Positions 38,225 through 64,000 of a DNA stretch of 64,000 nucleotides are shown here, one piece after another. A model generated the notes under the pieces. That model saw nothing but the letters and a program-made list of their open reading frames with translations, was not told the origin of the DNA and ran no database searches. The first letter of the stretch is position 1. Every line of letters begins with the position of its first letter. The position numbers and the translations under genes were made by a program. The DNA lies in NCBI GenBank assembly GCA_022264855.1, contig JABYQU010000044.1, positions 278,952 to 342,951 on the forward strand, in the 5' to 3' direction. This DNA is from Lenzites betulinus. Lineage: Eukaryota > Basidiomycota > Agaricomycetes > Polyporales > Polyporaceae.

Positions 38225-38475
38225 GGTGGAGCCAGAGCCGTGCCGGTAAGAGGAGGTCGCGAGATGGAGGGGCCACTTACCATATACGGACGGCAAGTAC
38301 GGGAGGGCGCGCGGGCGCTAGGCGTCGGCGCCGTCCGCGACAGCGTACAGGGTACCCCGAACGCCGCGCGCGGCGGCATTCCCGACGGCAGGGAGCGCCC
38401 GCAAACAATTGTGCAAACGTTTGCTTGAACGTTTGCTCGGACGTTCGTCTGGACATTTCGACTGACATTTCTTCG
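38225..38475 (-). repeat. Highly conserved GC-rich core of the giant hairpin, right arm
   Basis: Reverse-complement partner of 36700-36950, nearly identical over about 250 bp. Confidence 0.75.
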
Positions 38476-38815
38476 GACGTTTATTCAAACGTTTGCTTGA
38501 ACGTTCGGACAAAAGTTTTTGTAGATTGTCCAATTTAACACTTGTCGGAAGCTTTTGAACAACGTTTGCAGAGTGTTATAGGGCAAAAGGTGACCGTTTA
38601 CAGAGCTTCACCTGTGCATAGGGCTGTCTTGGCTGTCTTGTAAATTACTTACTATATATTGGGCACTAATCTAGACATTTGTGTGGCTTCAGATGCCTCT
38701 TATATGAGTATTCTGCACCCGGGGAGTACTGGGGAAATGACTGAAATTAAGAGGCGGGAGGCTTGAAACTTTGTGTCCCGATTGGGATGACAGGGCTGGA
38801 AGCGCTAGGTGGGAG

Positions 38816-39285: not shown

Positions 39286-40267
39286 ATTGCTCCACAACCA
39301 CCAAGTCTGAAAGCATATAAGTAGGTGATCTAGACTCAGATAAGCTCTGGCTACAGGCCACAACTTTTCCGGAGCAAATCGGTGACCTTCACTGACGGTC
39401 CAAGTTACAGAAACGCCCCCCCCTTTCTTTAATACTCACTTATCTTAATGACTAGTAGGGCTATTAGTACATAACAAAGTGCTACTAGTACAGATCTAAT
39501 TGGCCGACATTTTGAGATTGTCAGGTGGCTGTGCTAGTGAAAAAATGCGACAGCCATCAATACGTGTCCTAATACACAGGGGCAAAAGTCGAGTGGGTGA
39601 GGGTTAGGGAGAGGCTAAGCGCGGGGGGGCTAGGTTAAGCGCTGATGGATGGGCGGCAAAACCGTGATGGGCAGCCACTTTGTGATGGCTCAGCCACTTT
39701 GTGATGGCGATGTCTCAGATGCCTGCCTGCAGGCTGCGCTGTTCACTAGAAGCACAGCACCCTCCCTGCCCATTCCCTATAGATATATCCAAAGGGTAGA
39801 AATGTATAAGTAGCATATTGCCCAAGGAGGAGCGTGACACGCAGGGTTATTAGTGCCTGTGTTGTCGGCTGCCTTGGCTTACTATAGTAGACAGCAGGGC
39901 GGCGGAACATGTAGATAATGATATTACTGTATAATAACTATCAAAGGTCCTATGAAGAACGGATGGACGATGCATGCAGATAAGTAAAATGGGCGCAGGG
40001 TAGGGATTGGTGTGCGGCTTTGCCCGAGTGACTTACCGAAAAATGTTTCGGGTCAGCCTGTATGGGTGGGTCGAAACTTGGAAGGGGACGGAGGGGGAGT
40101 AGAATGGGTGATTATACTCTGCATGTTCTGGAAACCGTGCACCTGTGCGGACGCGGACACCGTCGCCAAACACGCACCCGCTCGGGGCCGGGCAGGCGCG
40201 CGGGCTCGGATGCATGCGTGAGAAGCAGGCACGCGCCAACGGCTTGGCGTTTAACACACAAGCGCTC
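39286..40267. other. Subtelomere-like noncoding region
   Basis: No gene is supported. A telomere-like GGGTTAGGG occurs near 39601-39609, next to short direct repeats (CAGCCACTTTGTGATGG, about 39674-39705). Confidence 0.4.
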
Positions 40268-40691
40268 GCCGCGGTCGCGCACTTGCGCGGCCGCGGGTGG
40301 CCTGCTTACACGCGGCCATGTTCCCGCGGCCGCGGGTGCGCAGCTCACACAGAGGAACGTGCCCGCTTCCGCGCAGATGCGCGACCGCGGGCTCCCATCT
40401 CCCACGCGGATAAGTGCCCGCGGCCGCGCAAGTGCGCGGCCGCGGGTGTCCGGCGCACACCCGGGTAAGGTCCCGCGGCCGCGCACCTGCGCGGCCGCGG
40501 GGTCCGATCTTCCACGCGGATAAGTGCCCGCGGCCGCGCAAGTGCGCGGCCGCGGGTGTCCGGCGCACATTCGGGTAAGGTCCCGCGGCCGCGCAGGTGC
40601 GCGGCCGCGGGTGTCCGGCGCACACTCGGGTAAGGTCCCGCGGCCGCGGGGTCCCATCTCCCACGCGGATAAGTGCCCGCGGCCGCGGGGT
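40268..40691. repeat. Palindrome array A (family 1, 55-bp period)
   Basis: Nine units start at 40268, 40323, 40362, 40417, 40472, 40527, 40582, 40637 and 40676. Full units are perfect or near-perfect palindromes: arm CCGCGGCCGCGCA, two variable bases, then its reverse complement. Units at 40323, 40637 and 40676 lack the central 16 bases. Full-unit spacing is exactly 55; after a short unit it is 39. The 25-nt spacers alternate between two types, one containing CGGGTAAGGT and one containing CGCGGATAAGTG. The array lies between the hairpin region and the 3' end of the gene at 41238. Confidence 0.95.
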
Positions 40692-41237
40692 ACGATCTCG
40701 CGCACAGACGCGGGTCCGCGACCCCGAGTCGGCAGCCCAGGCTCATGGGCACGGGCTTGGGAGGGCGGTCAACATTCACGCGTGTGGCCTCCGAGGAGCA
40801 CGGGCGCGGCCTCAGGCACAGTGGCGACGGAGCTGCACTCCCCACCCGATGGGCTGAGCGCAGCTCCACCATCCGTCAGCCAGTTTGCGCCAATGCGGGT
40901 TCGTTCGAGCATGCTGGCTTTCCGCATCATGGGATAGCAATCTTCGCGCCGATGCGACAAAGTCCAGCTTGCCTACCCGCCATGTGGCTGCAATGGCGAT
41001 CATGCTACTAGCACTTAAATCGTGTTGAGAACATATGTATTCGTATTCAATTCCATATTCGTGATCGACGCTGCTACACAATCCGACACCAGTACACTGT
41101 CCAACGTAGTAAGACATATCGATGCAGGTATACATTTCGACGCGGTTACACATACGGAGTTGGAGCCCAGAGCACGTTCGCATACAAGTACAACGTATAT
41201 AACTTCTCCCCACAATGTCTGACTCCAAAAGCGTCCT

Positions 41238-43417
41238 TTATCTCCCCGACGTGCGTGGGGTAGGGGCGGCGCGTGGTTGGGCAGGGCCACCGACGGCAGC
41301 AGCACGTCTGATGGCAATAGTGCGATGGATCTCATCGATCTCCTTCTCAGTGTCGGCGACACGACGGAAGGTGGCCTCCTGGGCGGCGATGAGGGCTGGG
41401 ACGGGCTCGTATCCGAGCAACGCTGCCGTGATACGAGCGGATGTCGTTTGTAGTTCATCTTTCAGTCCATGGAGCCGCAGGAGCAGCTCCTTGCGGCGGC
41501 TCTCCAACGCCGCTCTGGACGGCGAAGTGATGGCAGCGGCGGCGGGGGCGATGTCAGTGGAGGTGGAGGCGGGGGCGGCGACGGGGGCGGGGGCGGCGGA
41601 ACGGGCAGCAGGGGCGGCGGCAGAGCGGGTGGCAGGGGAGGTGGCCGCGACGCTCCCGGAGAGAGCAGCGGTGCGGGTAGAGGAGGACGGGCCGACGGCG
41701 GGCGGGGATGCTGTGGATCCAAGGCCGAGGAGGCCCGTCGGCTCAAATGGCTCGATGGAGCCAGTCGAGCGCTGCGGCGTGGGGCTCGTCAGCAACTCCG
41801 CTGGTGGAAGGGGGGGCCAGTAACCGGACCGAACGTGTGGTTGTGGGGGAGGACGATGGTGGGCAGCGCGAGGAGCTCTTGATGCGCTTCGTACCCGAGC
41901 GCCTTCACGGCGGCGATGGCCTCTGCGGACCATGTCGTTGCCTCGCCTTTGATGCCGCCGTTCTGGGTGTGGAGGTGTACGGTGTTGAGCATGAAAGGGT
42001 GGCTCACCAGCGTCTTCGTGGCGTCCGCGATGGCCCGGAAGATGTCCTGGAGGCGCCGTTGCGAGTACTGGTGTTGGGGTACCGTGAAGCCGAGGCCGTT
42101 GTACCATGCGGCGGTGCGGCCGGAGGAGTCTTGAAGTGGTGTAAGCAGAGAACAAGAGCGGAGGAGTGTACACTTACCGAAGACCTGACCCGACAGCGTA
42201 ATTCCGTGCCAGTCGCAGCCCCTGTGCGCTGCACCGCACTCCGAGCAGCGGCCTCGTCCTGCGTCGAGGACACAGCGCGCTGACATGGTGGACGTGTTTG
42301 TGCACACCGTACACTGTGGATCTCAGCATGGTGAGCGCGTACATGAAGAACAGGAGCTTACCGCGAAGTTAGCGTGAAGAAAGGCGATTGCGCCGGTGCC
42401 CGCCTTCCACTGGCTCATGGCAGGGATGGCGCGGCGAGTCCCCCACTCGCGGTAAGAGCCGGCGGCGATGTGACGATCGACTGGCAGACAGGGACAGTGT
42501 CAATATCGGGTGAAGCTGCGGGATCGTGTATACTCACATTGCGCGGTGAAGTCCCTGAAGTTGAGGCCGGCGACAACGGCTTCGTCCTTTGCGAGCACCA
42601 CACGACGATCGGCCTGCACGAGCCGGGCTTGGCTGTCCGGCGTGAACTCCCTCTGGAAGAGCTCACGCGCCTCGGTCGCCCGCATCACCGCCTCGTCGTG
42701 CTTGCGGTTTGCCTCTTCGAGGGCGTCCGCATAGAGCTTCTTTCCGTTCGGCCGGGTGAGGCGGACGTATTCCTCCATAAAGCGGCTGGCCATCGCTCGG
42801 TCGTCGTTGAACTCGAGGTGGCGGCGAAAGAACCGTTCGAAAACGACGTCGGAATTGGGTGTGTACCCGACCAAGTTCTAAGAAACATGTTAGTTGTGCT
42901 GTATGTGAGTGTGCGTGAAAATTAACGCACCAGAATGCGCTGCATCTCCTGGAACCAGCCCGTGAGGTGCGGGTTGGTGCACTTGACAAATTCGTCGCTG
43001 AATTTGGACAGAGAGAGAAAGGAGGCCTGCATGCTCAGCACAGCGTCGCGGGAGAGGGCCATTCTGGCAAGCAGGTAGGCGGACAAGGGTGTCGGTGTGA
43101 TGCCGTCGACGAGAGACCGCTGGCGATAGCGACACCGTCCGATGAGTGACCGCCTCCCTTTCCCATGGCCAAGTTAAGGTGGCAGATCGAACTGTAAGTT
43201 GTCCCAAGTATAGATTTGGGACGTGTGGACCCGACTACAGCGCTAGCCGCCACTCCTCCTCCAGCGGGTGCTGCAGAGGTAGACGATCATTCAGTGCATG
43301 CGCCAACGCTCCGTCCCACGACATTGAAGTGGTGAGGGCAGAGCGATCGATGCAGACGGCGCAAAGGCGGCGCAAAGATTGCTGAACACCAGCTGCGTAC
43401 CTACTCTTGCGTTCCAT
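41238..43417 (-). CDS. Unrecognised basidiomycete protein with a Cys-rich knuckle, one homopolymer frameshift
   Basis: Probable start ATG at 43417 (MERKSR). Exons then read SLVDGITPTPLSAYLLARMA and KFSDEFVKCTNPHLTGWFQE, then NLVGYTPNSDVVFERFFRRH, a helical ALEEANRKHDEAVMRATEAR, and REWGTRRAIPAMSQWKAGTG. The Cys-rich segment CTVCTNTSTMSARC, then CSECGAAHRGCDWHG, looks metal-binding. After AAWYNGLGF and LHTQNGGIKGEATTWS the frame fails in a run of seven G at 41810-41816. Adding one base lets it continue through an Ala/Pro/Ser-rich region and a helical C-terminus (REIDEIHRTIAIRRA-like) to the stop at 41238. Gene reality is supported by consistent splicing. No function can be given. Introns are short. 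Confidence 0.6.
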
Positions 43418-43579
43418 TTACACTTCCTACAGCATTCCAAGGGCGGGTGTGGATTGAATCCTACGATACATCATGTGGATATGATTATTTCATGATATGT
43501 TGAACACATGCAGGAATGTACGATGTGCTGGGGGTACAGGCCGCAGCCGCAGGTCGCGCGAGATGCCGGCTGATCTCCT

Positions 43580-44208
43580 CCGCGGCCGCGCAGGGGCGCA
43601 GGGGCGGGTCACGCGACGTGCCGGGCCAACGGGCCGTGACCGCCGAGGTTCGCGGCGGGGCGCGCGACGTGCCCGAGGGTCTCGTCCGCGGCCGCGCAGG
43701 TGCGCGGCCGCGCGCCGCTCGATATACTGGAGGGAACGATCCGCGGCCGCGCACTTGCGCAGCCGCGGGGCGCGCCACGTGCCGTGGGGTCTCGTGCGCG
43801 GCCGCGGGGCGTCCAATGTGGCGGAGGGTCTCGCCCGCGGCCGCGCACTTGGGCAGCCGCGAGGGCGCCATGTGGCGGAGGGTCTAGCCCGCGGCCGCGC
43901 AGGTGCGCGGCCGCGGGGCGTCGGATGCACTTGAGGGGCCGCGCCGCGGCGCGCGCGATGTGCCGGAGGGTCTCGCCCGCGGCCGCGGGCCGCTCGACAG
44001 CCTGGAGGATACGAGCCGCGGCCGCGCACCTGCGCAGCCGCGGGGCGCGCGATGGGGCGGAGGGTCTACCCCGCGGCCGCGCACCTGCGCGGCCGCGGGT
44101 CGCTCGATGTATCGGAGTGGACACGCCGCGGCCGCGCACATGCGCAGCCGCGGGGCGCGCGACGTGCCGGAGGGTCTCGTCCACGGCCGCGCAGGTGCGT
44201 GGACCCGC
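43580..44208. repeat. Palindrome array B (family 1, 55-bp period)
   Basis: Units start near 43580, 43686, 43741, 43796, 43835, 43889, about 43940 (degenerate), 43977, 44016, 44071, 44126 and 44181. Most steps are exactly 55 bp (43686-43741-43796; 44016-44071-44126-44181), with 39 bp after the centre-deleted units at 43796 and 43977. Spacers fall into two types, one with CGCTCGA and one with GGAGGGTCTC, which tend to alternate. The array sits between the 5' end of one large gene and the 3' end of the next. Confidence 0.93.
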
Positions 44209-44514
44209 CTCGCGCAAGGGTACATGGAAGACGTGTCCGTGGCTGGGCATCGCCGCGGACACGGGGTGTGCGGCTTACACCGTCTCGGCCCTAGTAAGAC
44301 GCATTCACAGGAACGGGTGGATGAAATATATGGTGGTTAAATGACCCACTCATTATTGTATTTATGATCACGGCAGACATTCTAGCACTATATGGGAGCA
44401 ATGGCAGATGACGACTGGGACACAGGGCAAATGAGAAGAGAGCAAATACGTAGGGTGAGGCATTAGGGATAGGAAGTTATATACACGTCCATAGGAGATG
44501 TAGCGCCAAAGAAT
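44209..44514. other. 3' flank of the 1,484-residue gene
   Basis: Short noncoding stretch between palindrome array B and the stop codon of the leftward gene. Nothing else recognised. Confidence 0.4.
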
Positions 44515-47500
44515 TCATTGCAGGCGGCGGCGGCGGCTGGGGCGGTAGAATTCTCCAGCTTCGGGGTCGCTTTCGGTACAATACCCATCGCCATCGTCAT
44601 CGTCATCATCACTGGAGAGCAGCCTCTTCGAACTGGAACCAGAGGGAGCGCGCTGAGCGGGCGCACGAGTCACCGGGCGCGCGGGTCGGGTCGCAGTGGG
44701 CGTGTCGGGGAAGTGTCCCATTTGAACAAGGTGGTTGGTGCCGTTGGATCCAAACATCGACCGCACGAGGGCGAGTGGCCCGGCAGCGGAGCTGGTGAGC
44801 AGCTTGAGGACTTCTGCATGACGCTCTTTCAGCTGAGCTTCGCTGAACATTACCCAGGTCGTATTCATCTGCGTCTTCTTGAGGACCCCCGAGGAGAGTG
44901 GGTATGCGATGCCCAAACGAATGAAGTTGACCGGTGTGAGCGACTTTGGTTCTACGCGAGAGGTGAGCGATGTGAGGCAAGCAAATGCAGTAAGTTGAAC
45001 AGCGCAACTCACGATGTTTGCGGCTCCACGCATCGCCAAGTGGCTCTCCACTGTCGAGTCGGCGGCGGAGAGGGGATGCAGTGTTCATCCACAAGAGCAG
45101 GACGATGGCGGCGTGCACGAGGTACAGCGACTCGTCCTTGACGCCCTTGACGCCCTTGCGGACGATCCACGGAACGCTGCGGATGAGCTCGATGGCCTCG
45201 CGAATCTTGAACACGTTGGCGGCGGACTCCTTCCCCTTGCCCTGGGGCGCCTTGAGACCGATGCGCGCGATTGGCTCCTTGAGCTCTTCCTTCATGGCGT
45301 CGTTGAACCCTACCATGGGCATCATCTTGGACAACAGGAAGGCGAGGTGGAAGGCGAGATCGCACATCCAGTCGCTGCGCTTGCTCTTGAATTGTGTTTG
45401 TCCCCATGCATAGGCCTCGGCGATCCAAGGTATCGTTTTCGCGCCGGTCGTGTCGGCGGGAACGGACCAGTTGGCAGGAAGGGATGCCCGACCGAGGTAC
45501 TGGGGGTAGTCGGCGATGACGATCTCCGTCGTGTCCCAGGAGCTGTTGGGGTCGGCGCGCATCTCTTCAAGAGAGTTCTGCGACATCTGATACTGCAGAC
45601 GTTCGGCGTGGGTGAGGGGGGCAGAGCGCCCAGCGACAGGGGCGTGGACCTGGGCGCCGAGAGTAGACCACGACCGGATGGATGGCTGTGTCGAGGGGAG
45701 GCGGCGGCCCTCGGTGGGGGTGAGGGCGTCCGGGAAGAAGCGAATGCGTCGCTCTTCGACAATATATGTGAATGCCTCTTTGAAGAGAGCCATCGTATCG
45801 GCGGGACTCATACCGGCGCGCGTGCCGCGAAGGTTTGCGTCGCCGAAGGCCGCGCGGAGAGCGGGCCAGCACTGGCCCTTGTTCCACAACGGTGGACGGA
45901 CGCTGCGGAGGCCGGAAGTGGAGGCGATGTGGATGAGTATGTCGACCAAGTCCTTGACGGACATCTGCCCACGGGCGGACTTGGCCAGACCGCGCGCCGC
46001 CTCGATTTGATCGCGAGACACCGCCTGAGTGAGGACGATGCGGGTGTCTGCTTGCACTCCCCAGTCCAACGGGTGGTCGACATCGAGCCACTTCCGGAGA
46101 GCGACGCGGCGCGTGCGGGCGGCCAGCAAGTCGTTGTGGCCGCGGTCGGCGAGGATGGGGTCGATTTCTGCGCGCACCTGGGAGGAGACGAGCTGAAGGA
46201 CGTCCTTGACGAATGCGCCCATCACGATGTCCGCGAGGAGGCGGAATTCGCGTCCAAGGCTGGATGCATCGGCCCAGCGCGTCTTCGGCATGCGAGCGAT
46301 AGCAACCTTCATGTAGAGCAGGGTCTCGTAGGCCTGTGTGGACGGACACGTGTGAGCAAGATGGAGTTGGTGCTAAGACGAAGCGGGGAAAGGACTGACC
46401 ACAAAATGCGGCTGACCGTACGTGATCTCCTGTGTGCGGCGGGAGGAGACCAGTGGGCGGTGAGTAAGCTCATCCACGGGCCACATGCGCATGTCAATTG
46501 ATGGAGGACGTCCGTACGATGAGCCGCCGGGGATGAAGCCTGGCCAGAGGACGGGGAATCCGGTATCCATGATGCCGCGGAGGGGCCAGAGTTCCATCAT
46601 GAGGCGGCGTGGGAGGACCTTTGCCGCGCCGGTGTAGTTGTAGTTCAGGAGACGTTCGAGTACGCTGATCGCCTCGACGTAGATCGGGTTGGGCATGCTG
46701 GGGGTGGACGCGCCTGCTTCACTCTGGATGGACCCGTTGACGGCGGTGGCCTGCGAGCTGCCTGCGACGGCGGTGATCTGCGAGCTGCCTGCAACGGCGG
46801 TGGCCTGCGAGCTGTTCGACGACCTGGTCTGAGAGCTTCGAGCAGCCGTTCTCGCAGCGGGAGCGTTGTTTGCGGTAAGATTTGCGTTGGCCTCGATGCA
46901 TGGCTGGACGTGGGCCTTCCACAGCATCTTCATGGTGACCGCGAAGGGGTGGCCGCACCAAACGTATGCGTAGGGGAAGCACTGAGGGAGGGAAGGCGCC
47001 GAGGTGATCAGCAACGGACACGACGAGCGATGGGCACGGGGAGGCGTGTGCAGGGGGAGGACTTACGTCATGGGTGAGAAGAACGGACACGCTCTTGATG
47101 GCCTCGAGTAAAGAGCTGCGTCGGCAGAATGCCTCGTACTTCATGATGAAATGGCGATAGATGTCGCCGCCGTTGTGGAACTCCCCTCGCAGGTGGTCGA
47201 AGTCGATGAGGAAGTTGTTCTCGACACGCAGGCAGTTGTCGGAGCCGAGAAGGAGCTGGTTGACGAGGCGTTCGTGGGGGAGGCTGTAGCTGACCTTGCC
47301 GAAGAGCTTGTCGGCGGTGTTGCGAGCCTTCGGCGTGGTTGCCCAGGGCCCTGCAGACGTCGCGGTGAGCATCCCCTTCTGCGCAAGGTGATGGCGGGCA
47401 CTGAAGCGGGTGCTGTGGGCGATGGTGTTGTAACACTGGGAATTCAGTGCGACGATGGCCTTGCCGCCAGAGTGAGGGCGAGAGAGCTCGTTGGACAGGG

Positions 47501-49803
47501 AGCGGATGAGCGGCATCATGGGCTGCATCACGCCGTCGGCCTGCCACTGTCCGATGTTCTTGGAGAAGAAATGGGGGTAGGAGGTGTAGGCGACGTCCTC
47601 GAGGGGAGGCAAGCGACGGGCATACTGCATGTTCAGCTCGTGGTCGACGTCGTTTATGTTGCCCGGGTTATGCGCGTCAGGGTCAACGACGGGATCGACT
47701 TCCATGAGCTCGTCGTCCAAGCCAGAGGGAGCGCAGAAGAGGCGGTGGATGGCACTGAGATCCTGCATGATGCCGCAGCGTTCGGAGGAATGAAGACCGA
47801 CAGCACGCCTGCGTTTGATGCGTGTACAGTCGGGGGCGTAAATACGTTTCTCAAGGCCATTCCCATCGACGAGAGGATATGTAAGAATGTCCTGGATGAG
47901 GGTGCGACTGTTGGGGTCGTCTGAGTCGTAGATCTCGGGATTTGCGTCCTTGATCCGTTGAGCGTTGTAAGGACGCCAATCCTGAACTGGGACGGCGCTG
48001 CAGTACACATGGTGCAAAGTCAGATGCAGATATAGCAGAAGAGGGTCAGAGACAGGGACGGAGCTTACGCATAGTGGGCCGCAAGGGCAATGGTCATGCG
48101 CCAGACAGGCTTGTAGTCGATTTCGCGATCCCAAAACTCGGCGACCTGATCGATGGTCTGGGCCGTGCCGACCTCTCGGTTCTGGCCATAGTTGAGGATG
48201 GCAATGACAGGGACGGAGTCTTCGAGCTCCGGAAAGCGGTAGCTGGCGGGAGCGCCCTCGTACCATGTGTCAAAGTTCTCCTTGTACGCCTTTGCAAACT
48301 TCTTCATCTCCGCAATGGACAACTTGAATGTACCGCGATCTCTGCGCATACGAATAGAATAAGTACACAGTACAGACAGAATGATCATCAATCGATGCGA
48401 CACTGACTGCCCGCGGCCGCGGATGGTCCTCCAGGACGGACGCGTGTCCCGCGGCCGCGCACCTGCGCAGCCGCGGGTGGTCCTCTGAGGTCGACGCTTG
48501 TCCCCGCGGCCGCGCAGGTGCGCGGCCGCGGGTGGTCCTCAAAGGCCGACGCTTGTCCCCGCGGCCGCGCAGGTGCGCAGCCGCGGGTGGTCCTCCAAGG
48601 CCGACGCGTGTCCCCGCGGCCGCGCAGGTGCGCGGCCGCGGGTGGTTCTCCAAGGCCGACGCGGGTCCCCGCGGCCGCGCACCTGCGCGGCCGCGGGTTT
48701 CCTAACGTGCGATGCCGGGCCAGGCTCATGATACCTGTCCTAACATAGTGGCGAGACTTACGAGCAGTCCCAGGCCCTATTGAGGTCTTGCGGTGAGTTC
48801 ACCGGCGGATAGTTTTGCGTCAGGCGTATGTCCTTGATCTTCGCCGTGTGGAGGGCGTATAGGACTGAGGCGATCATCACAAGTGAGAGCTGCGCTTTCA
48901 TCACCGTGGTCTTCTTGCTGAGCACGACACGGTGCGGGTGAACTGGGTTGTCGAAGCAGTCGCTCGGAACCAGAGACAACCACACGTCCTCGTCCGACTG
49001 TGTGTGTCCGATACGCAACATGCGTCCCGCCATATCGCACCCAAACATGCGCACGTCGCCGCCGAACTGATGGTGTCGCTTCTTCATGTCGATGGTGAAC
49101 TGCCATGTGTGGTCGTACTGGCCGCCGGGCCTGGTGTTGTTGGGCAGGAGGACGTCAAACCCGAGCTCGCGGGCAATGATGAGCCGGTGGTCCAAATACA
49201 CCTGCAGCGCGGAGCAGTTGGGTGAGGTGGTGCGCGAACACGAACACATGGACTCACGCCAGGCATCATCCACATGATATTAGGGTCAAAGGGGTCGATC
49301 TTGTACTTCGCATCGATCACGAGACGATTCTTTCGGGCAGCGATCTCCATAGCCTTCTTGTATTTGCCGCGCCTGTGGACTTCCTCCAACTCGGAGAGAT
49401 AGATGGTATGCATCTTGGCCTCCTCGTACTTTCGCGCATTGCGGGACTGCTGGAGCATGTCGTCCTCGATGCTGCGCGTGATCTCTTCCTGCTCGACGCC
49501 GTCCTCGGCGACCATGGTCACCGGCACGCCATCCTCGACCAGCGCGTCGGCGGGCGCGAGCTCATCCTCGCGGGCGTTTCTGAATTCGTTGAACGCCTCT
49601 GCGCCGAGCACCGCTTGCTCCATCGCCTGCTCGAGCGCGACGATGTCGGCGTCCTCGCGGTCTCTGCAACGCGCAAATATTATTCATACGCATAAGAGGC
49701 AGGGCGTGGTAGCAGACAGTAACTCGAAACTAGCGTACCTGCCATCCCCGTCGAACTCAAACAACTCGTTGTCGCTTTGGAAAGGTGAGGAGCGGTCGGA
49801 CAT
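44515..49803 (-). CDS. Large unrecognised protein, about 1,484 residues, eight exons
   Basis: Exons 49803-49739, 49663-49258, 49201-48762, 48341-48069, 47997-47067, 46981-46400, 46333-45013 and 44951-44515 join in frame with GT-AG ends to 4,455 nt. The N-terminus is acidic (FQSDNELFEFDGDG). It is followed by a charged helical stretch and then globular regions such as RLIIARELGFDVLLPNNTRP, FGGDVRMFGCDMAGRMLRIG and PYAYVWCGHPFAVTMKMLWK. Near the end are SKRLLSSDDDDDDGDGYC and a basic RRRRLQ tail, suggesting a nuclear protein. I recognise no domain. The seven introns are 56-85 nt, except intron 3 (48342-48761, 420 nt), which contains palindrome array C. The frame is undamaged, so the gene looks functional. 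It shares strand and style with the genes on either side. Confidence 0.75.
48411..48697. repeat. Palindrome array C (family 1), inside an intron
   Basis: Units start at 48411 (centre-deleted), 48449, 48504, 48559, 48614 and 48669. The last five are spaced exactly 55 bp. Spacers are near-copies of one sequence containing GGTCCTC and AAGGCCGACGC. The array fills most of intron 3 of the 1,484-residue gene. Confidence 0.95.
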
Positions 49804-50266
49804 GGTGTGTAGTGGGAGAAAGCGTGGCTGGAGTGGTTGGGGGAGGGGCTATGGACTTCGGTCCTGTGCGGTCGTGTGCCCAGGGTCGAGGTGCACAAGC
49901 GACTCCGACATTACGCTGAAACATCCCCACATTGTCGGATGTGCGGACCAGCACCTCCTCGGCCATGGATCCGTGGAGACGCACAATAATTACTCGCATC
50001 AAACACACTAGCATGGGAAGAGTAGCGCGGGTTGCGCTTGGTGCAAGCTCCTCATTTGGCGTCCCTTCGGGAAGCGCGTGCGCTTGTAAAGACAAGAAAA
50101 GACCGTGTACGTTTATTAACTAGCTAGTAGATGGAAGACATAGATGCGTTGGACGACATATGGGAATATCTCAACGGGGACAGACATGTAGCATACAAAC
50201 AGAAGATACGGATGCGGGGTGCGAGAGCGCGCGCGAGGAGGGGCGCGGACGGGGGCCAGACCGTGT
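49804..50266. other. Intergenic region between two large leftward genes
   Basis: Promoter side of the 1,484-residue gene and 3' flank of the next. No gene or repeat recognised. Confidence 0.4.
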
Positions 50267-53200
50267 CTACACCGCCGAATCGTTAGCCGCATCCTCAAAC
50301 TCCTGGTCGCTGGTGACCAACTCCTCGTGCTCCGTCTGTATCGGAAGCGCAGACGCGGACGCCGGGGCCTTCCCCTTCCCCTTGCCCGATGTGGGGGGCT
50401 TGGTGCACGCGGTCGAGGTGCTCGCGGCCGCCCACGCAGTCGACGCGCGCCTGGTCCGCTTCGCCGGGGGCGCGTCCTCGGGAGCGACGGCGGCGGCGCC
50501 GCGCTTCATCGGCGATGAGGCAGCAGCAGCGGCAGCTCTGGCAGAGGTCCGTGTCTCGCGAGTTGGCTTTCCTACACCATAAATACATGTTGTTAGCGGT
50601 TTGCGGTTGTACAACACTATGACAGACTTACGGGGAGAGGGCGTCGGCGTCGACTGGGGCTGGGAGGACGGAGGAGGCTGGGAGGACGCCTCCGGCGTCA
50701 ACTCCGCGTCTTGGGACGGGGCGGGGGTTTCAGGCACAAGAACGCGGCCTTCGGGGGGGTCCATCGCCCGCTGAATTGACGCGCCGCGCTGGGGTGAGTT
50801 GATGACGCTGGGCCGCGGGGTCTCGAGGTCCATGTCGACGTCCATCGGCAGCTTGGGGAACAGAGGCGACTCGAGGAATCTGTCCCAGTCCTCCTGCGAC
50901 GCTGCGCAAGGTGTACACGCGGGCGTGAGGTCAGGCTCGCTCTGGCTGCAGTCAAGCACCCTGGGGAGGTTGCGCAACCAGGCGGGTCTGGCGATTGCGT
51001 TGTTGAGCACCATGGCGGCGGCCACTAAGGCCCCCCCCACCGTCGGTGCCGCGTCCACTCCTCGCCGAAGACGTCCGCGATTGCGCGGTAATAGTCGTCA
51101 TGATACTTGGGTGCGAGGCCAGCAGGGGGCAGGGTGGTGACCTGGTCGCGCTCATTCTTGACCAGAGGGCACACGCCGATCGCAAGGGCATAGTCCACGG
51201 CGTCGGTGTCGTACTTCTCCGCATCCCGGATTAAGCCATACAGCTCAGCGGTGGAGTAATCGAACACCTCGTCCCATGGGTTCGTGGAACACAGGCCCTT
51301 CTTGCCGACCCCGGGGTGCCGATTTATCAGACTCTCCATCCGTCCACGAGCGATGAGGACGGCGGCGGCGGTGATGTACTCGACAGGGGAGCGCGTGATG
51401 CTCTCCTCAGTGCGGACGATGTGCTGAAGGCCGAGGGGGGCGCCTTCATCTGGGTCCGCGCTGGACAGAGATGCGGCGAGCTGCGGCTCCCACTGCGATG
51501 GGCCGTCGGTGGCGGGCGGGGGCTGCTCGGGCGCGGACGGTGTCTGAGCGGAGGCGTGCGAGGGCGAGGGGGGAGACGGCGGGGGAGAGGTCGAGTGCGG
51601 TTGCGGAGGTGCGGAGGCGGAATTCGCGGGGGCCGCGTTGTCCTGCTGAGTGTCTTGGGGTGGCTCCCTCGCACCCTTGCCGTCCTCACCGTCTACATTC
51701 GGCTCGTCTTCCGGGTGCGACTCCTGCGCGGCCTTGTCCGCGCCGCGCGCCTTCACGGCCGCCTCGCCCTCGTCGTCGTCGTCGTCGGAGGAGGAGGAGG
51801 AGGAGGAGCTCTTGTCGCCGGACTCCCCTGTGGTCTTCACATCGTCGCCCATCTCCTCGTCGGCGTCCTCCGCGCCCTCGGCGTCCGCGCGGGAATCCTG
51901 CGCTCCCTCGGCGGCCTCGCGCATCGTCACGTCGCCGTCGTCCTGCGCAGGCTCGTCTGCGTCGCGCATCTCGACGTCGGCTTGACCCTTGCCTTTGTCC
52001 GGCTGCGCGCTCGCCTGGGTCTTCGAACGCGTGACGACCGGCGTGGCGGTCCCTGACGTGGGCGTGGAGTCCTTGCTCATGTCCGGCTCGTCGTCAGAGA
52101 AGTCGAGGTTGTCGAAGAAGGCCGAGGAGATCTGCTTCTGCGCCTTCAGCGCGCGTTCAGACTCCTTCTTCTGCTCCTCGATGTCGCCGTCGGGGTCCGA
52201 CTTGGAGGGTGGGATGTGCTGGGGCCGGATGGCAGACAACTCGAGGATCTTGAGCTTGGGGTTCTTCTCCTTCTCCTCCTGCAGCTTGAGGTGGTGGGCC
52301 TTGCGGTTGACGACAAAGGCGTTGTACGCCGCGGGATCGTGCGCCTTGAACGCCTCCAAGTCGGCGAACGCGAGAGGGTCAGGAGCGGACACGAGGGGCT
52401 TGCAATTGAGAAGGCGGAGAGATGGGCCTGGGTTGACGTACACTCCGCCCTCGGGATGGAGCCTGCGATACTCCAGGCGGTTGGCGTTGCGAGTGATCTC
52501 CTGTTATTGTAGGGATCTGTAGTTAGTCGTGCGTATACAAGACCGAATGAAACGATGTAAAAAATATGGAACGCACCAAGAGCAAGTTGTCGAGGGCTGC
52601 CGCGACCGCAGGGTTCACCGCGTCCTTCTCAGCGGGGAAGGCGCGCGCGGCGGTGCTCTTCCTGACGGTGCTGACAATGTTCTTGGCGTCCTGGGCGTAT
52701 TGGTCCCAACGCGCTATCTCGTCCTTCTTCGCCTGCAGATCGAGGGCTTCCCGACGATCAGTGGGTGGGGGCGGGGTCTCCATCATGATCTCCTCGACAT
52801 GCTTTGTATCCCATTGGGGGCGCGTCGGCACGGGGCGGGAGTCGGTCTTCTGTCCGGGGGCAGGTGCCCAGTGCTGCTGGAGGAAGTCGAGGAACTCCTG
52901 CCGGAGCCGCACGCCAGCGGGTGTACCGAGCATGTGCTTTGTAACACGATCGTAGATCGCCCGCGCCACATACACCCAGAGGGCGAGGACCGCGAAGTCG
53001 AGGCCAATGTTGTGGCTGTCGACCGCGCGCCACTCGACGACATTGCGCGTCAGCAGACGCGTCGCCTTGTTGTTATCGGTGAAGGATTGGTGAATCGGGG
53101 CGGACATCTGGTGGTCGGCGCGGCGGCCATTGATCCTTGCGCCCAGGACTTTCGCCGGGACTACGAGGTTGGTGGGCCGACTGACTGGTCCGTACTTGTA

Positions 53201-55021
53201 GTCCTTGAAGTGCCGGTGGATCGTCTTGACGTCGTCTGTATCATAGTCCTGCCAGTTGTCCCTCTCGTTGAATGCGTCAAGCCAGAACTTTGACAGCTCA
53301 ATGAACTTATCCAGGTCTTCGTCCATCATGAGAGCCTTGGCCGTGGGACGCAAGCCGTTCATCATGACGTTGAAGAACCGCGTGTCCTCGACCTTGACGA
53401 CACTTTGCATTTCGAGGTCGGCCTCCTGGAGGTCGTTCAAATGGGCGAAGATCCACTGCCAGAGCTGTAGCGCAACACAGCGGATCCCGTAAGTACATAT
53501 GACAGGCCATGGAGCGAGCATTGGATACTGACGTGGAGCACACCGTTCACGGGTGTGTGGCCCATGAGCACAGGGTCTTGAATGAACACCTGCATGTGCG
53601 AGGTGTGGTCATAGATGTCGGTGTCCGCACCCGTGATGGCCTTGTCGACGAGTGGGTCCATGATGCGGCTGATCTGTGAAGGACATGTAAGTCTGGATGT
53701 CACAGAGACGATAGGAGAGCGCGCGTCACGTCATCCCCGCGGCCGCGCACCTGCGCGGCCGCGGGCCCCAGGTGCGTGACTCTTCGTAGTCCCGCGGCCG
53801 CGCAAGTGCGCGGCCGCGGGGGTTGCTGACGTGGCGGGTGGAGAGTCCCGCGGCCGCGCACCTGCGCGGCCGCGGGCCCCAGGTGCGTGCCTCGTCGTAG
53901 CCCCGCGGCCGCGGGGTACGAATACCCACATGATGAACGTTCCGCGGCCGCGCAGCTGCGCGGCCGCGGGGCGCTCTGCGCGTGACTCGATGCGAGAGGG
54001 GAGATGACTCACATATTGAATTCCGAACGACGCCTCATGGAGCACGTTGTACATGTCCTCTATGGACGATTTCGTCGGCAGTGGAAGGTCCATTGTGTGG
54101 CCCATCTTGCGCCGGAACGCGAACCACCTGAACTTGGCGTGGGCGTGTTTCTTCGCCAGCATCGTTGCCTCCGTCGCAGGGCCGTGTGCCGGCGCCCTCC
54201 ACCATGCCATACAGAGCCTCTCCGTCCGTTCCCAGTAGATCTCCGCGGCTCTCTTCCACTTCACACTCGCCATCCGCCCGAAGTCGGTCCGGTCCGGACG
54301 CAGTAACTTCACGTACACGTCGTCGATCCGGTCCATGAGGGTCGGATGCCAGATCTCCTTCTGCTCGATCGACGCGTTCTTGAAGGCCGGCTCACGGATT
54401 GCCTCGTAGTGGGTGAACGATTGCTCGAGCTTTTCCGCCTTGACCTTGTCGCGCTTCTGCCACATCAGCGCGAACTTCTTCAGCATTACCCACTGGTCGA
54501 CCAGCTCGGTCTCGGTGATGTTGCCGTTTCCATCGCTCATCGGCCAGTAGGCCGCCATCGCAATGTCGAGCATGTCCTCGACCTGCTTCTCGATGACCGC
54601 AGACCACATCTAAACACATAGGTCAGTCCATCCATCTGCTGCACGATGCACGCGTGAAGCAACGTACCCCGCCAACCACCTCGTGTCGCCGCGGCTTCTC
54701 GATGTTCTTTGCCTCCACCCGCGGGCGCACCAGACGGTCGCGCAGCTCCTGGATCTTCAACGTTTGTCCGTCACCAAAGTACGTGAGCTTGAAGACGGTC
54801 GTGAGGAAGTTGAACGCGCGCGGCGACCTGAACAGCCGGTCCCATCCCCTCCGGTTGGGGTCGTTCAACCCGACGATTGGCTTGACGACCTGCGTGTCCC
54901 AGTCATCGCTGCCGACGACCAGCTGCCACCCCTTCTTCTGGTACTCGCGCAGCTTCTCCACGCACGTGAAGTGGCAGTTTTGCAGCCGCTCCTCCGGGGT
55001 CGCCTTGTATGTCGCGGTCAC
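50267..55021 (-). CDS. Large unrecognised protein, 5'-incomplete and frameshifted in a G8 run
   Basis: Exons 55021-54668, 54609-54013, 53673-53533, 53464-52577 and 52500 onward all join in phase. Segments include CVEKLREYQKKGWQLVVGSD, FLTTVFKLTYFGDGQTLKI, QWVMLKKFALMWQKRDKVKA and DRTDFGRMASVKWKRAAEIY. A long acidic Ser/Asp region (SSSSSSSSDDDDDEGE) suggests a nuclear protein. The frame ends at 51025 in a run of eight C on the plus strand (51031-51038); one extra base opens it through ALVAAAMVLNNAIARPAW to a basic tail ending at 50267. No ATG precedes 55021: an in-frame stop lies about 40 bp upstream with no acceptor between. The 339-nt intron 53674-54012 contains palindrome array D; other introns are 58-76 nt. 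No domain recognised. It may be a recently damaged gene or one with sequencing errors. Confidence 0.65.
53737..53969. repeat. Palindrome array D (family 1), inside an intron
   Basis: Units start at 53737, 53792, 53848, 53903 (centre-deleted) and 53942, giving steps 55, 56, 55 and 39. The first and third spacers are near-identical (CCCCAGGTGCGTG...), the second differs, repeating the alternation of array A. The array is the bulk of a 339-nt intron. Confidence 0.94.
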
Positions 55022-55083
55022 GTCGTTGCCGGCGAGGTTATGAGGACATGCCAGGGGTCACAGGGGTCAGATTATGGGCCAAA

Positions 55084-55115
55084 CCTAACCCTACGGTGCG
55101 CACTTTTAGGGTTAG
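55084..55115. repeat. Inverted pair of telomere-like motifs
   Basis: CCTAACCCTA (55084-55093) and TTAGGGTTAG (55106-55115) face each other across 12 bp, about 60 bp beyond the point where the large leftward gene loses its 5' end. Confidence 0.8.
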
Positions 55116-55249
55116 CACTTGCCTTATTGGGACGTCGGTCATAAAATATATTTTGCTACAAGTACCGTATAGTGCGACACCACTTCACGTATCACTGATA
55201 ATATTTGCGTACCATATTGCAATGTATCGTAATCATATATTATGACAAG

Positions 55250-55830
55250 GGGTGTCTCCCGGAGGCTCTGCTGGTGTGTAGTACACAGCTTCATATGCAC
55301 CGTGTGTGTACTCGGAACAGATGTGTGTACAGAGCATGTCTCCAGGAAGCACCCCCTGCGCACATGGACACACCGTACTTGGAGCGGATGTGTGTACGGA
55401 GCATGTCTCCAGGAGACACCCATGCTCACACAACCGCATAATGCTCTGAGCAGGTGTGTGTGCAGGGGGTGCTTCCAGGAAGCACCCCCTGCGCACATGG
55501 ACACACCGTACTTGGAGCGGATGTGTGTATGGACCATGTCTCCAGGAGACACCCTGTGCTCACCAGGTGCGTGTGCAGGGGTGCTTCCCGGAAGCACCCC
55601 CTGTGCATGTATACACACCATACTCAGCGCTTGGAGCGGGTGTGTGTACGGAGCATGTCTCCAGGAGACACCCCATGCTCACACAACCGCATAATGCTCT
55701 GAGCAGGTGTGTGTGCAGGGGTGCTTCCCGGAAACACCCCCTGTGCACGTGTACACACCGTACAAAACTGCCTAATGCTCTGAGCAGGTGCATGTGCAGG
55801 GGTGCTTCCCGGAAGCACCCTCTGGTCATA
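55250..55830. repeat. Palindrome array E (family 2, TCC(A/C)GGA core)
   Basis: At least eight short palindromes of the form GTGTCTCCAGGAGACAC or GTGCTTCCCGGAAGCAC occur, starting near 55335, 55402, 55467, 55535, 55578, 55654, 55718 and 55800. Spacers repeat strings such as GTGTGTAC(G/A)GAGCATG, CGCACATGGACACACCGTAC and ATAATGCTCTGAGCAGGTG. The two palindrome types largely alternate. Lies between the large leftward gene and the BAH-PHD gene. Confidence 0.9.
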
Positions 55831-55941
55831 TATTTGTACTGTGCTCTGAGCGGGTGTCAGTGTTAAGAATGTAAGCAGCCTATGTCTCAGTTATGCTCTA
55901 TCGGAGATTTCTATAAATTGTATACAACCCAAGTTAAACTA

Positions 55942-57211
55942 TTATATATCATTTCCACAAATAGGGCATTCATAAATGTCCTCCGGTTTCCAACCCTGCA
56001 ACATAGCCAACGCCTCCTGCGGCATCAGCGCAATATCCTTTGCCACACCAATATTCTCCAGAAGATACTCTTGAACGTCATTGGGGCAGCCGTTCTGAGC
56101 ATCTTCTTCACGAATCTTGCTGACGATGAGCTCAAATGAGAGCGGGTAGTTGAGGCCTGGCATGCCACGTTGGATGGGAAGTGTGCTGAGCTGCTGCCAA
56201 AGCAACCAGTCGAATGGCCCATATTGAACACGGTTTCCGCATCGCATTTGAACGGCCTCCTCGACTGTTTGGGGCTGAAGAGGACGGGTATCGCGAGGGA
56301 GGGGGAGGGAGACCTCGACAGCATTGGAGCGCTCGCAGCAGGTGGTATGAAGCCACTTGTTGCACCGAAAGCACCACCGAAGTATGTCGCCCTCAGCTCC
56401 CAAGGCCGGTAGGGTGTACTGGCCGTCGCAGGTTTCGGTGCACATGCTGAACACACAGCTCTAAAGTTAATACATATTAGAAATAGATTTGAGCAAATAC
56501 GGGGGGAAAGAACTCACGAGTGGCAGCTCATAGCGCTCAAGGGTGGGGTTGTTCATGTTGAAGCTGCGTATGAGAGTCTTGTCACCCCTGGCGAAAAGGG
56601 TGGCCGCATCGATCACTGGGAAGGAGATGGCAGTGGGGGTCATATTGATGACCCGCTCGAGCGAATGGATGCGTTCGGCGAATGTGTATGTGTCATGGGA
56701 CAGCGATACAAGCTCGTTCTCCCCCTGGGACACGATAAAGTCCCGCCCGACTTGGTTGGCCATCTCGTCAGGGGTAAGCTCCCCATAGGAGAAGAACCAG
56801 TGGAGCTTGACAAGCTATGTGCAGTCCAATGTGAGAGATAGCATATTACATGTTGTATATATACTTACCGAACCCAGTTCAGGATGCTTGCACAACCCAG
56901 CGATGCGTGCATACATCTTGCGGTCGAACTTGATTGCATCATCACGTCCGGACCCGTCAGGGTAAATGGAGACACTGCAAGCAAACCATTAGTGTCTGTG
57001 CACAAATGGCAGGGAGAGCCATACTAATCGCGACATTTGATGTAGAAGCTTTCACCAGGTTCTGGTCGACGGCCTAATAATTCAACTTAGAAAATACACC
57101 AGAATGCTAGCGGGATGAACACTTACACAATAGGCCCTGCACAACTTCACCTGCACGGAATGCATCGCTCCATTCTATGGCAGAGCGAGGGACAGCTGCA
57201 AGCGTAGGCAT
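55942..57211 (-). CDS. BAH domain plus PHD-like zinc finger protein
   Basis: The ATG at 57211 opens MPTLAAVPRSAIEWSDAFRA. Spliced exons continue GESFYIKCRDYVSIYPDGSG, then MYARIAGLCKHPELGS and LVKLHWFFSYGELTPDEMAN, DFIVSQGENELVSLSHDTYT and ERIHSLERVI. This order (strand, IARI-type strand, KLHWFFxxxEL, NELxLSxH, INSI-like end) fits a BAH domain. The C-terminal exon has MCTETCDGQY, then RWCFRCNKWLHTTCC, the second half of a PHD-type finger, and ends ECPICGNDI with stop at 55942. BAH-PHD proteins bind nucleosomes or modified histone tails and usually take part in silencing. Five exons with 45-75 nt introns. The BAH call rests on pattern only. It sits between two palindrome arrays. Confidence 0.7.
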
Positions 57212-62300: not shown

Positions 62301-63857
62301 AACGTGTCTCCCGGACACACGCTCTCCGGGCAAGATGGCGCGTCTCCATACTCGGGCCGCAGCCTGTATGACGCAAGCGTGTCTCCGGGAAACACGCAAC
62401 CTGCTACCGACCGTTCAGGGACGTGTTGGGCGATTGTTCCCACAATCTCCTCGCTTCACCAGCGTCGCATAGCGCGTGGCTCCCGGAAACACTTCGTTAA
62501 GCAGCGGAGTGAATCGGCGCACATGCATTAATTGCCGGCGTGGGTCCTCTCTCGCGCATTCGAGCTTCCCGGAACCCCGGATCGTCCGTCATGAATCGCG
62601 TTAACTCACACTTTCACAGACTTTCTACCTCAGTATTCGTCAAGCGTTACTGCACCCCGGCTTCTCCGGAATCACCCCTTACAAGTTCACCGCTGAGGAC
62701 GAGCTTCAGCCCTATTCGACACACCCGTCGACCAAGATCGACGTGGTCCTTCGGCTTCTACAATGGCACATCGATCACTTCTGCCGACCACCGCTCTTCT
62801 ATGATCCCGAAGAACAGCAGTTCGCCCCCATGAACAACGACCAATGGGAGCTTACCAAACCATCTCCGGGCGACGAGGTCCTAACCGACAAGGCGATTGT
62901 ATATCTGGCTTTCCCGAGTCTTAACTGGCTCATCAAATCGGTGAGCTTGGTTTCGGTGGGACCCGACGGCGCATGCTAACGCTTTTGCTAGGCACTCGAC
63001 GAGCAAGACATTCCCTACCAAGAGATTAATGGGCTCCTAGGAACCGCACAGCGTGCGGCCGCGCTGACAGAGTTTCGTACCTCGAAATCAGTACACGTTC
63101 TGCTGCTCTCCGGAGTGGGGCTGTGCGGACTGAACATGGCGTTCGCAAATATCGTCATCATCGTTGTACGTTCTAGCGCTACATATCTTGCTCTCTTACT
63201 AATAATGCTCACAGGATAATCTGTGGTCTGCCCAAGAGGACCAACAACTCATCGGGCGCGTCTGGCGTTATTCGCAGATGAAAAGAGTCATCGTGTACCG
63301 TGTCATTGCACAGGAAACGTCCGATGTGTTCCTTAACAACATCGGATTCCAGAAGGGGAATTTGCATAGCGAGTTCGCCGGTATCGAACCCGCTATCCGT
63401 ACGTTCTGCATCCCTTTTGTTGATTCATGGATGTTACAACTGAAACCTGTTCTAGGCCGCGCTTTCGAGCCAACGACAGACCCCTCGATTGAGGTGGACG
63501 ACCCAGAAGGTGGGTCCGAAGGCGACAAGGCGGGCGACAAAGACAACACCGACGTGGACGGCAACCAGGGCGCGGACAGCGGTAAGGCCATAGACCGCGA
63601 GAACGTCACTGAGGCGACAGACCAGCCGGAACCTAAGAAGAAACGACAACGCGGTCGGTCTGCGACGACGAAGCCCGCCGCAAAGCGCGCGAAGACCTCC
63701 GCCGCAGCTGCCGATGGCGGGCTTCGTCGTCGCAGACCGACCGCGTTGTCGTTTCTTCTTAGGTTCCGGCTGGTCTGTCGCCTCAGTGACGTTCTCGCGG
63801 TCTATGGCCTTACCGCTGTCCGCGCCCTGGTTGCCGTCCACGTCGGTGTTGTCTTTG
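59386..63857 (+). CDS. SNF2-family helicase/ATPase, chromosome-terminal gene with rearranged 3' end
   Basis: Eleven exons join in phase: 59386-59784, 59839-60061, 60110-60295, 60343-60852, 60904-61127, 61181-61435, 61485-61910, 62620-62940, 62992-63165, 63215-63398 and 63457 onward. Motif I is MDEVGVGKT, preceded by HQWVGIL; motif Ia is LFVVPPGLMHQW; motif II is VLDEAHYARTPN; motif III is ALSATPV. The second lobe has YQEINGLL, LLLSGVGLCGLNM (motif V) and QQLIGRVWRYSQ (motif VI). These define an SNF2 ATPase. A nuclear-signal-like PKKKRQRGRS and AAKRAKT follow, then the frame enters the reverse copy of its own exon at 63716 and reads on into TTAGGG as Leu-Gly with no stop. About 1,053 residues are native. 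Introns are 47-58 nt, except 61911-62619 (709 nt), which holds palindrome array G. Likely acts on chromatin; terminal helicase genes are common in fungi. Confidence 0.88.
62131..62492. repeat. Palindrome array G (family 2), inside the helicase intron
   Basis: Imperfect palindromes of the form CGTGTCTCC(G/T)GGA(G/A)(G/A)CACG start at 62153, 62226, 62303, 62378 and (weaker) 62475. The first four steps are 73, 77 and 75 bp. They share the TCC-GGA core of arrays E and F. The array explains why this intron is 709 nt while the other nine are about 50. Confidence 0.85.
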
Positions 63858-63858
63858 T
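63537..63858. repeat. 143-bp perfect inverted repeat abutting the telomere
   Basis: Positions 63537-63679 are repeated exactly, reverse-complemented, at 63716-63858 around a 36-nt loop. The left arm is the last coding stretch of the helicase; the right arm is its mirror copy. The right arm ends in GTCTTTGT and the telomere follows at once with TTAGG, sharing one T. The arms have no mismatch that I could find. Confidence 0.95.
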
Positions 63859-64000
63859 TAGGTTAGGGTTAGGGTTAGGGTTAGGGTTAGGGTTAGGGTT
63901 AGGGTTAGGGTTAGGGTTAGGGTTAGGGTTAGGGTTAGGGTTAGGGTTAGGGTTAGGGTTAGGGTTAGGGTTAGGGTTAGGGTTAGGGTTAGGGTTAGGG
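63858..64000 (+). repeat. Telomere (TTAGGG)n
   Basis: One short TTAGG unit at 63858-63862 and then 23 perfect TTAGGG units (63863-64000) run to the end of the window. The orientation (TTAGGG toward the right) is that of a right chromosome end. Confidence 0.99.

What the first reader, a model, noticed from the sequence alone, without database searches (positions are those of the whole stretch)
40268..53969. Family of GC-rich palindromes in four separate arrays with an invariant 55-bp period
About thirty palindromes share arms CCGCGGCCGCGCA around two free bases. At four loci up to 13 kb apart, with unrelated spacers, units start 55 bp apart almost without exception (for example 40417-40472-40527-40582; 48449-48504-48559-48614-48669; 44016-44071-44126-44181; 53737-53792). 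A conserved period without conserved spacer sequence means spacing itself is constrained, either by the mechanism that makes the arrays or by a protein that reads them (55 bp is about five helical turns). I know no named fungal nuclear element with this architecture.
Basis: partly seen in the sequence, partly recalled or inferred. Interest (0 to 1): 0.92.

Follow-up and report, generated by a model that had tools for sequence, protein, structure and literature searches.

The report
Palindrome arrays in stacked chromosome-end elements
Evenly spaced arrays of DNA palindromes near the chromosome ends of a wood-rotting fungus turn out to be built-in parts of large, repeatedly shortened elements stacked one way towards the chromosome tip, a layout known from telomere-attaching mobile DNA but here without any reverse-transcriptase gene found inside.

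Summary
The arrays are real. The window is the end of a contig of the polypore Lenzites betulinus and ends in TTAGGG repeats. In the seven stretches scanned, 87 of 116 close start intervals are exactly 55 bp and 142 of 170 gaps between neighbouring palindromes are exactly 27 bp; the 39-bp step is a 12-bp short palindrome plus the same gap. The four arrays of the window have mutually unrelated spacers, but most arrays elsewhere share one spacer family, and homologous arrays differ by whole units, as minisatellites do.

Two arrays lie inside introns, two between or behind genes. All four belong to an element with a base-exact end: 14 copies, all pointing to the contig interior. Shortened copies are cut on the tip side; 7 of 9 are joined there directly to another element's exact end. 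A second element family does the same with an unrelated 31-bp palindrome (steps 54-55 bp, but one array has 63). No reverse transcriptase was found in these elements. The layout matches telomere-attached elements (HeT-A, Terminons, MoTeRs), but membership tests fail. Whether the spacing is read or merely inherited is open.

The parts
39572..40145 (-). 3'-terminal domain of element T1; base-exact terminus at 39572 (...CCCTAACCCTCACCCACTCGACTTTTGCCCCTGTGTAT on the minus strand)
   Evidence: 14 copies genome-wide end at the same base, 13 different joints
40269..40688 (.). array 1 (behind gene C, before the terminal domain): 6 long (28 bp) and 3 short (12 bp) palindromes, 8 of 8 gaps 27 bp
41238..43062 (-). 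gene C (approximate model, no Pfam match)
43541..44264 (.). array 2 (between genes C and A): diverse spacers, some degenerate units
44515..49803 (-). gene A, 1484 aa by my splicing, 7 introns; relatives found only in Lenzites, Trametes and Cubamyces
   Evidence: the NCBI protein P0002 agrees across the array intron
48342..48761 (-). intron 3 of gene A (GTAAGT...CAG, 420 bp) that holds array 3
48411..48696 (.). array 3 inside intron 3: 5 long and 1 short palindrome; gaps 26, 27, 27, 27, 27
50267..55035 (-). gene B, apparently cut off at its 5' side at the joint 55036 (no Pfam match)
53674..54012 (-). intron of gene B (GTGAGT...CAG, 339 bp) that holds array 4 (read by eye, no independent annotation)
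53737..53969 (.). array 4 inside the gene B intron: 4 long and 1 short palindrome; gaps 27, 28, 27, 27
55036..55085 (-). exact terminus of another element (T4, ...GGCATGTCCTCATAACC) joined to gene B
   Evidence: 6 places, one with a mismatch
63857..64000 (+). telomere repeats (TTAGGG)n at the contig end

Best explanation
The window's arrays are internal parts of mobile, chromosome-end elements. Element T1 (15.5 kb here: genes B, A, C and a 3' terminal domain, all read towards the centromere) carries one family-specific palindrome in four places: behind gene C, between genes, and inside two introns. A second family (T2) carries another palindrome in several places. Elements are added at chromosome ends by their fixed 3' terminus; erosion shortens them from the tip side before the next element is joined, giving one-way stacks (shown: fixed terminus, one orientation, graded truncation, direct joints; inferred: addition at the end, by reverse transcription primed from the chromosome end with an enzyme supplied in trans). 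The arrays grow and shrink by whole units (shown), and the palindrome, more than the spacer, is held by sequence-specific recognition, most likely by a dimeric protein of the element, possibly as RNA hairpins (inferred).
For: Terminus T1: 14 copies, all within 67 kb of a contig end, 14 of 14 pointing to the contig interior (11 '+' near starts, 3 '-' near ends, lengths); 13 different joints among 14. Terminus T2: 15 copies, 14 of 15 pointing inwards, 1 (C106, 23-kb contig) undecidable; 14 of 14 joints inspected differ. The ends of C48 and C75 do carry telomere repeats. Shortened copies with the same 3' end: T1 13.9, 9.1 and 4.9 kb against 15.5 kb; T2 8.3, 3.5 (twice, one a segmental copy) and 1.4 kb, 67 and 63 bp. 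Upstream of the cut lies another element's exact terminus in 7 of these 9 copies (T2 twice on C57, T1 three times, T4 and T2 on C73); at C75:17632 a T4-like end seen only once, with a 4-bp gap; C17:16624 not examined. 20 of the 29 arrays found lie in T1 bodies. Intron 3 of gene A is 420 bp with the array in C48 and 475 bp (one unit more) in C57, but 56-67 bp without array in four divergent copies (C10, C106, C6, C3); C10 and C3 instead carry arrays of other palindromes in intron 6. Palindrome positions 2, 10 and 12 hardly vary while 7 and 8 do. Whole-unit gain and loss.
Against: No reverse transcriptase, transposase or other mobility gene was found: Pfam found nothing above cut-off in the ORFs of genes A, B and C or the T2 ORFs tested, and none of the 150 RVT_1 matches scored (of 168 candidates) lies in a T1 or T2 body; the 5' ends of full-length elements are unknown. 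None of the 28 T1/T2 joints shown begins with telomere repeats. T1 genes have introns although they read in the sense direction; the gene A copy near the start of C57 reads against the T2 direction, and whether it belongs to T2 is not shown. Seven contig starts checked carry no telomere run. 9 of 29 arrays lie outside shown T1 bodies. Compensatory arm changes are at chance (6 against 6.1 in shuffles). No binding protein is identified. Segmental duplication explains part of the copies.
Confidence: 0.55

Rival explanations
1. Ordinary subtelomeric minisatellite: one ancestral 55-bp unit was duplicated and spread with subtelomeric segments; unequal exchange between palindromes keeps whole units, so the period persists while spacers drift. 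No function.
For: Most spacers are homologous in register (12.3-19.3 of 27 identical between groups E, E48, F, G, H against 6.4-6.8 by shifting); whole-unit gain and loss and 110-bp higher-order units; 12-bp short form explained by slippage between two CGCGGCCGCG copies 16 bp apart; segmental copies up to 99.5% identical; other arrays with 63, 67 and 96 bp.
Against: Within the same units the palindrome is about 95% conserved (mean over; biased by the 5-mismatch limit) while spacers between some arrays are at chance; fixed and free positions inside the palindrome; unrelated palindromes share steps of about 52-55 bp.
Confidence: 0.35
2. Spacing read by a protein array: cooperative binding to palindromes about five helical turns apart.
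For: 25 of 25 within-cluster steps of the second palindrome's exact cores are 54, 55, 109 or 164; 7 of 10 of the third are 51-52; diverged spacers of array 2 mostly keep 27 bp; indels per substitution in the terminal domain are 0.057, so more length changes than seen would be expected between spacers.
Against: 55 is 5.2 turns; the frequent 39 step shifts phase; imperfect copies of the second palindrome form an array with 63-bp steps in the T2 body, and arrays of 67 and 96 bp lie beside. The indel yardstick is rough. I lowered this from 0.25 to 0.2 because of the 63-bp array.
Confidence: 0.2
3. Subterminal repeats of a DNA transposon (CACTA-like) bound by its transposase.
For: Array about 550-700 bp (T1) and 207 bp (T2, 6 of 6 copies measured) inside a fixed terminus; host gene pieces (OST48, C2, ABC_tran) upstream of three T1 ends.
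Against: Only one fixed end; no inverted second end in the stretches held; single orientation; no transposase found.
Confidence: 0.1
4. Assembly artefact or CRISPR-like acquisition.
For: CRISPR-like look: 28-bp palindromic repeat, 27-bp spacers.
Against: Spacers are shared and tandemly related, not unique; same structure on 8 contigs with different unit numbers.
Confidence: 0.02

Closest known systems
Terminons / Athena (EN-deficient Penelope-like giant telomeric elements of bdelloid rotifers)
   Same: Giant multi-ORF units at chromosome ends, head-to-tail, 5'-truncated, host genes between units (passages of PMC6431247); T1 and T2 3' ends hold a CCCTAACCC motif
   Different: No reverse transcriptase found, no hammerhead match, joints not at telomere repeats; the word search 'palindrom' had 0 hits in that paper's main text
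HeT-A/TART/TAHRE of Drosophila (recalled; listing and abstract starts seen only)
   Same: One-way stacks, fixed 3' end towards the centromere, 5' truncation; HeT-A also lacks its own reverse transcriptase (recalled)
   Different: Here: introns, several large genes, TTAGGG telomere present, no poly(A) end
MoTeRs of Magnaporthe oryzae (PMC7367193, passages); FoTeRs of Fusarium (listing and abstract start)
   Same: Fungal chromosome-end elements with 5' truncations
   Different: MoTeRs are retrotransposons in telomere repeats, with telomere repeats at their 3' ends; 'palindrom' has 0 hits in that paper's main text
Mitochondrial double-hairpin elements / GC clusters (recalled)
   Same: GC-rich palindromes
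   Different: These arrays are nuclear, evenly spaced and element-borne
Subterminal repeat arrays of CACTA transposons (recalled)
   Same: Repeated motifs inside a terminus, family-specific
   Different: One fixed end only, no transposase found, also in introns

Membership tests
Terminon / Penelope-like telomeric element | Penelope-type reverse transcriptase in the element | tested here: not met
   150 of 168 RVT_1 candidates scored, none in T1/T2 bodies. The 5' part of full-length elements is unknown
Terminon / Penelope-like telomeric element | One-way stacks, 5' truncation, fixed 3' end | tested here: met
Terminon / Penelope-like telomeric element | Hammerhead ribozyme at the 3' end | tested here: not met
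   no hammerhead among matches up to E = 1 (window 39500-41300; L036, L038, L042)
Terminon / MoTeR | Attachment to telomere repeats | tested here: not met
   none of 28 T1/T2 joints; one T4 joint (C2:12031) does
DNA transposon (CACTA-like) | Two terminal inverted repeats and target-site duplication | tested here: inconclusive
   only one end found in the stretches held
DNA transposon (CACTA-like) | Transposase | tested here: not met
   no Pfam match above cut-off in the element ORFs tested
Minisatellite | Tandem units; homologous arrays differ by whole units | tested here: met
CRISPR array | Unique spacers of foreign origin | tested here: not met
   spacers recur within and between arrays; foreign origin not searched

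The most novel reading that the evidence does not exclude
A so far unnamed class of chromosome-end element in polypore fungi: giant, intron-bearing, without its own reverse transcriptase, joined to chromosome ends by an exact 3' terminus, each family marked along its length (3' region, intergenic, intronic) by its own regularly spaced palindrome, which an element-encoded dimeric protein reads to pick its own DNA or RNA; palindrome and protein diverge together.
Probability: 0.25. Interest if true: 0.87.

Novelty: new variant of a known kind. Interest (0 to 1): 0.68.

Why it matters
If right, it adds to the short list of elements that build chromosome ends, in a fungus that also keeps TTAGGG telomeres, and it does so without a recognised reverse transcriptase, which makes the joining mechanism a direct question. 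The family-specific palindromes with kept spacing, some in introns, give a sharp test of whether non-coding spacing is read or merely inherited. Subtelomeres of related polypores could be annotated with these termini at once.

Tried and rejected
CRISPR-like reading: rejected, spacers are tandemly related; I did not search spacers against foreign DNA. RNA-pairing selection: no excess of compensatory changes. Known RNAs: nothing at gathering threshold in the window, only sub-threshold hairpin-like matches (mostly microRNA families) at the termini. Fold of gene A: AlphaFold model of P0002 with 7 sequences had mean pLDDT 44 and pTM 0.29, so no fold search was run. Prokaryote and viral contigs: 1 match place in a bacterial MAG contig and 0, not followed up. 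Short shared bases at element joints: 4, 4 (same event), 2 and 2 at four of eight joints, none or unresolved at the other four; not used as evidence. Two key papers (PMC5850863, PMC1890498) are not held.

Full report
WHERE IT IS. The window is G000:C48:278952-342951, the last 64 kb of a 342,951-bp contig, and ends in TTAGGG repeats at 63857-64000. Protein P0002, on a contig of the same length, is named Lenzites betulinus. So this is a nuclear chromosome end.

THE OBSERVATION. Four arrays of CCGCGGCCGCGCANNTGCGCGGCCGCGG lie at 40269-40688, 43541-44264, 48411-48696 and 53737-53969. Genome-wide the 24-bp core has 58 exact matches (reversed control 0); the 50 places listed are on C2, C17, C19, C48, C57, C73 and C75. 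A variant pattern added C89, another one C17:20781 (not fetched). In the seven stretches examined, 87 of 116 close start intervals are 55 and 14 are 94, and 142 of 170 gaps are exactly 27 bp. The 39-bp step is a 12-bp palindrome CCGCGGCCGCGG plus 27 bp; it follows from the long form by loss of 16 bp between two copies of CGCGGCCGCG. One 60-bp gap in array 2 reads 27 + CCGCGG + 27.

SPACERS. I grouped the 27-bp spacers by context. Five groups (E, E48, F, G, H) share one spacer family in register (means 12.3-19.3 of 27 identical, 6.4-6.8 by shifting). Array-3 spacers resemble that family weakly (9.5-13.3). Those of arrays 2 and 4 are at or near chance. A second type (GTCACGTATGG...) occurs beside the first in groups E and G; tested on five examples of each it is at chance (5.7 against 6.7). 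Homologous arrays on different contigs keep unit order but differ by whole units and by long-to-short changes.

PALINDROME. In 164 copies (60 distinct; at most 5 mismatches by construction) variation is concentrated at positions 7 and 8 (C to T in 31 and 35) and their partners 21 and 22; positions 2, 4 and 10, which are CpG, change to T in 3, 0 and 1, though position 4 changes to A in 11. Double compensating changes are at chance (6 against 6.1). This looks like a recognised sequence rather than pairing alone.

GENES AND INTRONS. Genes A, B and C read on the minus strand, away from the telomere. Gene A (1484 aa) was spliced by hand and P0002 agrees across the array intron: array 3 lies in a 420-bp GTAAGT...CAG intron. 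Array 4 lies in a 339-bp intron of gene B (my reading only). Arrays 1 and 2 lie behind and between genes. Relatives of gene A above threshold: 2 and 5 proteins in two searches, all from Lenzites, Trametes and Cubamyces (about 8000 candidates scored each time). Pfam found nothing in the ORFs of A, B and C tested.

OTHER PALINDROMES. Divergent gene A copies (34-39% identical over the main exon) on C10, C106, C6 and C3 have an intron 3 of 56, 56, 56 and 67 bp. C10 and C3, the two read over the gene, have arrays in intron 6, where the window's copy has 66 bp. Their palindromes differ: GTCTCTCCATCGGCANTGCCGATGGAGAGAC (C10) and GTCTCGCTGGCGGACGTCCGCCAGCGAGAC (C3). Genome-wide the first has 43 exact cores, 25 of 25 within-cluster steps being 54, 55, 109 or 164; the second has 16, steps 51-52 in 7 of 10, the others 166, 210 and 227; controls 0. 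Against a universal rule: with up to 3 mismatches the first palindrome also forms an array with 63-bp steps (C57:12776-13028, C17:13048-13363), and arrays at 55.3-55.8 and 57.8-58.5 kb of the window have steps of about 67 and 96. The C10 array is itself an inverted repeat of its spacers (read).

ELEMENTS. Next to array 1 a 570-bp domain ends at 39572, at the same base in 11 further copies held; genome-wide 14 copies, all within 67 kb of a contig end and all pointing inwards. 13 of the 14 joints differ; the neighbours on C48 and C27 are related sequence joined at different bases. The C10-type palindrome sits 207 bp inside a second exact terminus (T2; 6 of 6 copies measured), 15 copies, 14 pointing inwards and one undecidable. 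Telomere repeats were seen at the ends of C48 and C75 (156-bp run, 1.4 kb from a T2 terminus), not at seven contig starts checked. Shortened copies: T1 13.9, 9.1, 4.9 kb against 15.5 kb in the window; T2 8.3, 3.5 (twice), 1.4 kb, 67 and 63 bp against the copy at C57:1-15208, which is supported as one element only as far as C17 matches it (7042-15208). Directly before the cut lies another element's exact terminus in 7 of 9: T2 (C57:23606, C57:15208, C73:4391), T1 (C17:7265, C57:20132, C57:37512), T4 (C73:2990). At C75:17632 a T4-like end was seen only once, with a 4-bp gap; C17:16624 was not examined. The window's own copy abuts T4 at 55036. C57:1-41 kb thus reads T2-T1-T2-T1-T2, all the same way; part is a segmental copy. 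Seven further T1 ends share only about 0.7-1.06 kb with the window's element; host gene pieces (OST48, C2, ABC transporter) lie upstream of three. Of 29 arrays 20 lie in T1 bodies; for 9 (C75:1895 and groups F, G, H) this is not shown.

READING. A fixed 3' end, one orientation and graded loss at the other side are what addition to chromosome ends gives. Reverse transcription from the chromosome end is the best known way to get it, but no reverse transcriptase was found inside, so it would have to act in trans, and none of the 28 joints shown is at telomere repeats. I therefore do not file these as Terminons, HeT-A or MoTeRs. The window's arrays are parts of such an element, since T1, and likewise T2, has its own palindrome in several places of its body. 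Whether the spacing is read or only inherited remains open; recognition of the palindrome has a moderate chance, recognition of the spacing a lower one.

LITERATURE. Nine searches were run. No listed paper, by title or abstract start, describes evenly spaced palindrome arrays in fungal subtelomeres; the lists were cut (20 of 39, 20 of 81, 12 of 265, 12 of 31). Passages read: PMC7473861, PMC6431247, PMC7367193. Subscription papers are mostly not held, so this is no proof of absence.

Noticed in passing
window 55241-55850: Another palindromic array (GGGGTGCTTCCVGGAAGCACCCC and TCTCC-GGAG forms, steps often 66-67 bp) in the next element outwards (T4), near its terminus and a small gene at about 55945-57227.
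   Followed up: partly
window 57762-58540: 96-bp tandem array with long palindromes and a shorter one between them.
   Followed up: partly
window 61910-62618: Long intron of the telomere-side helicase gene holds degenerate GTGTCTCC-type motifs 73-77 bp apart.
   Followed up: no
window 59381-63500: Helicase-like gene next to the telomere (a similar ORF on C75 matches SNF2-rel_dom).
   Followed up: partly
window 63537-63858: Fold-back: about 160 bp before the telomere are an inverted copy of the preceding 160 bp (94%); real or assembly artefact not tested.
   Followed up: no
window 36680-38495: Large inverted repeat, arms 826 bp at 81% identity.
   Followed up: no
L033 2573-2900 (C10): Intronic array whose spacers read A B C B' A', so the whole array is an inverted repeat.
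   Followed up: no
C2:12031: T4 terminus joined to CTAACCCTAA telomere-type repeats, the clearest such joint seen.
   Followed up: no
C57:12776-13028 and C17:13048-13363: Array of imperfect copies of the second palindrome with 63-bp instead of 54-55-bp steps.
   Followed up: no
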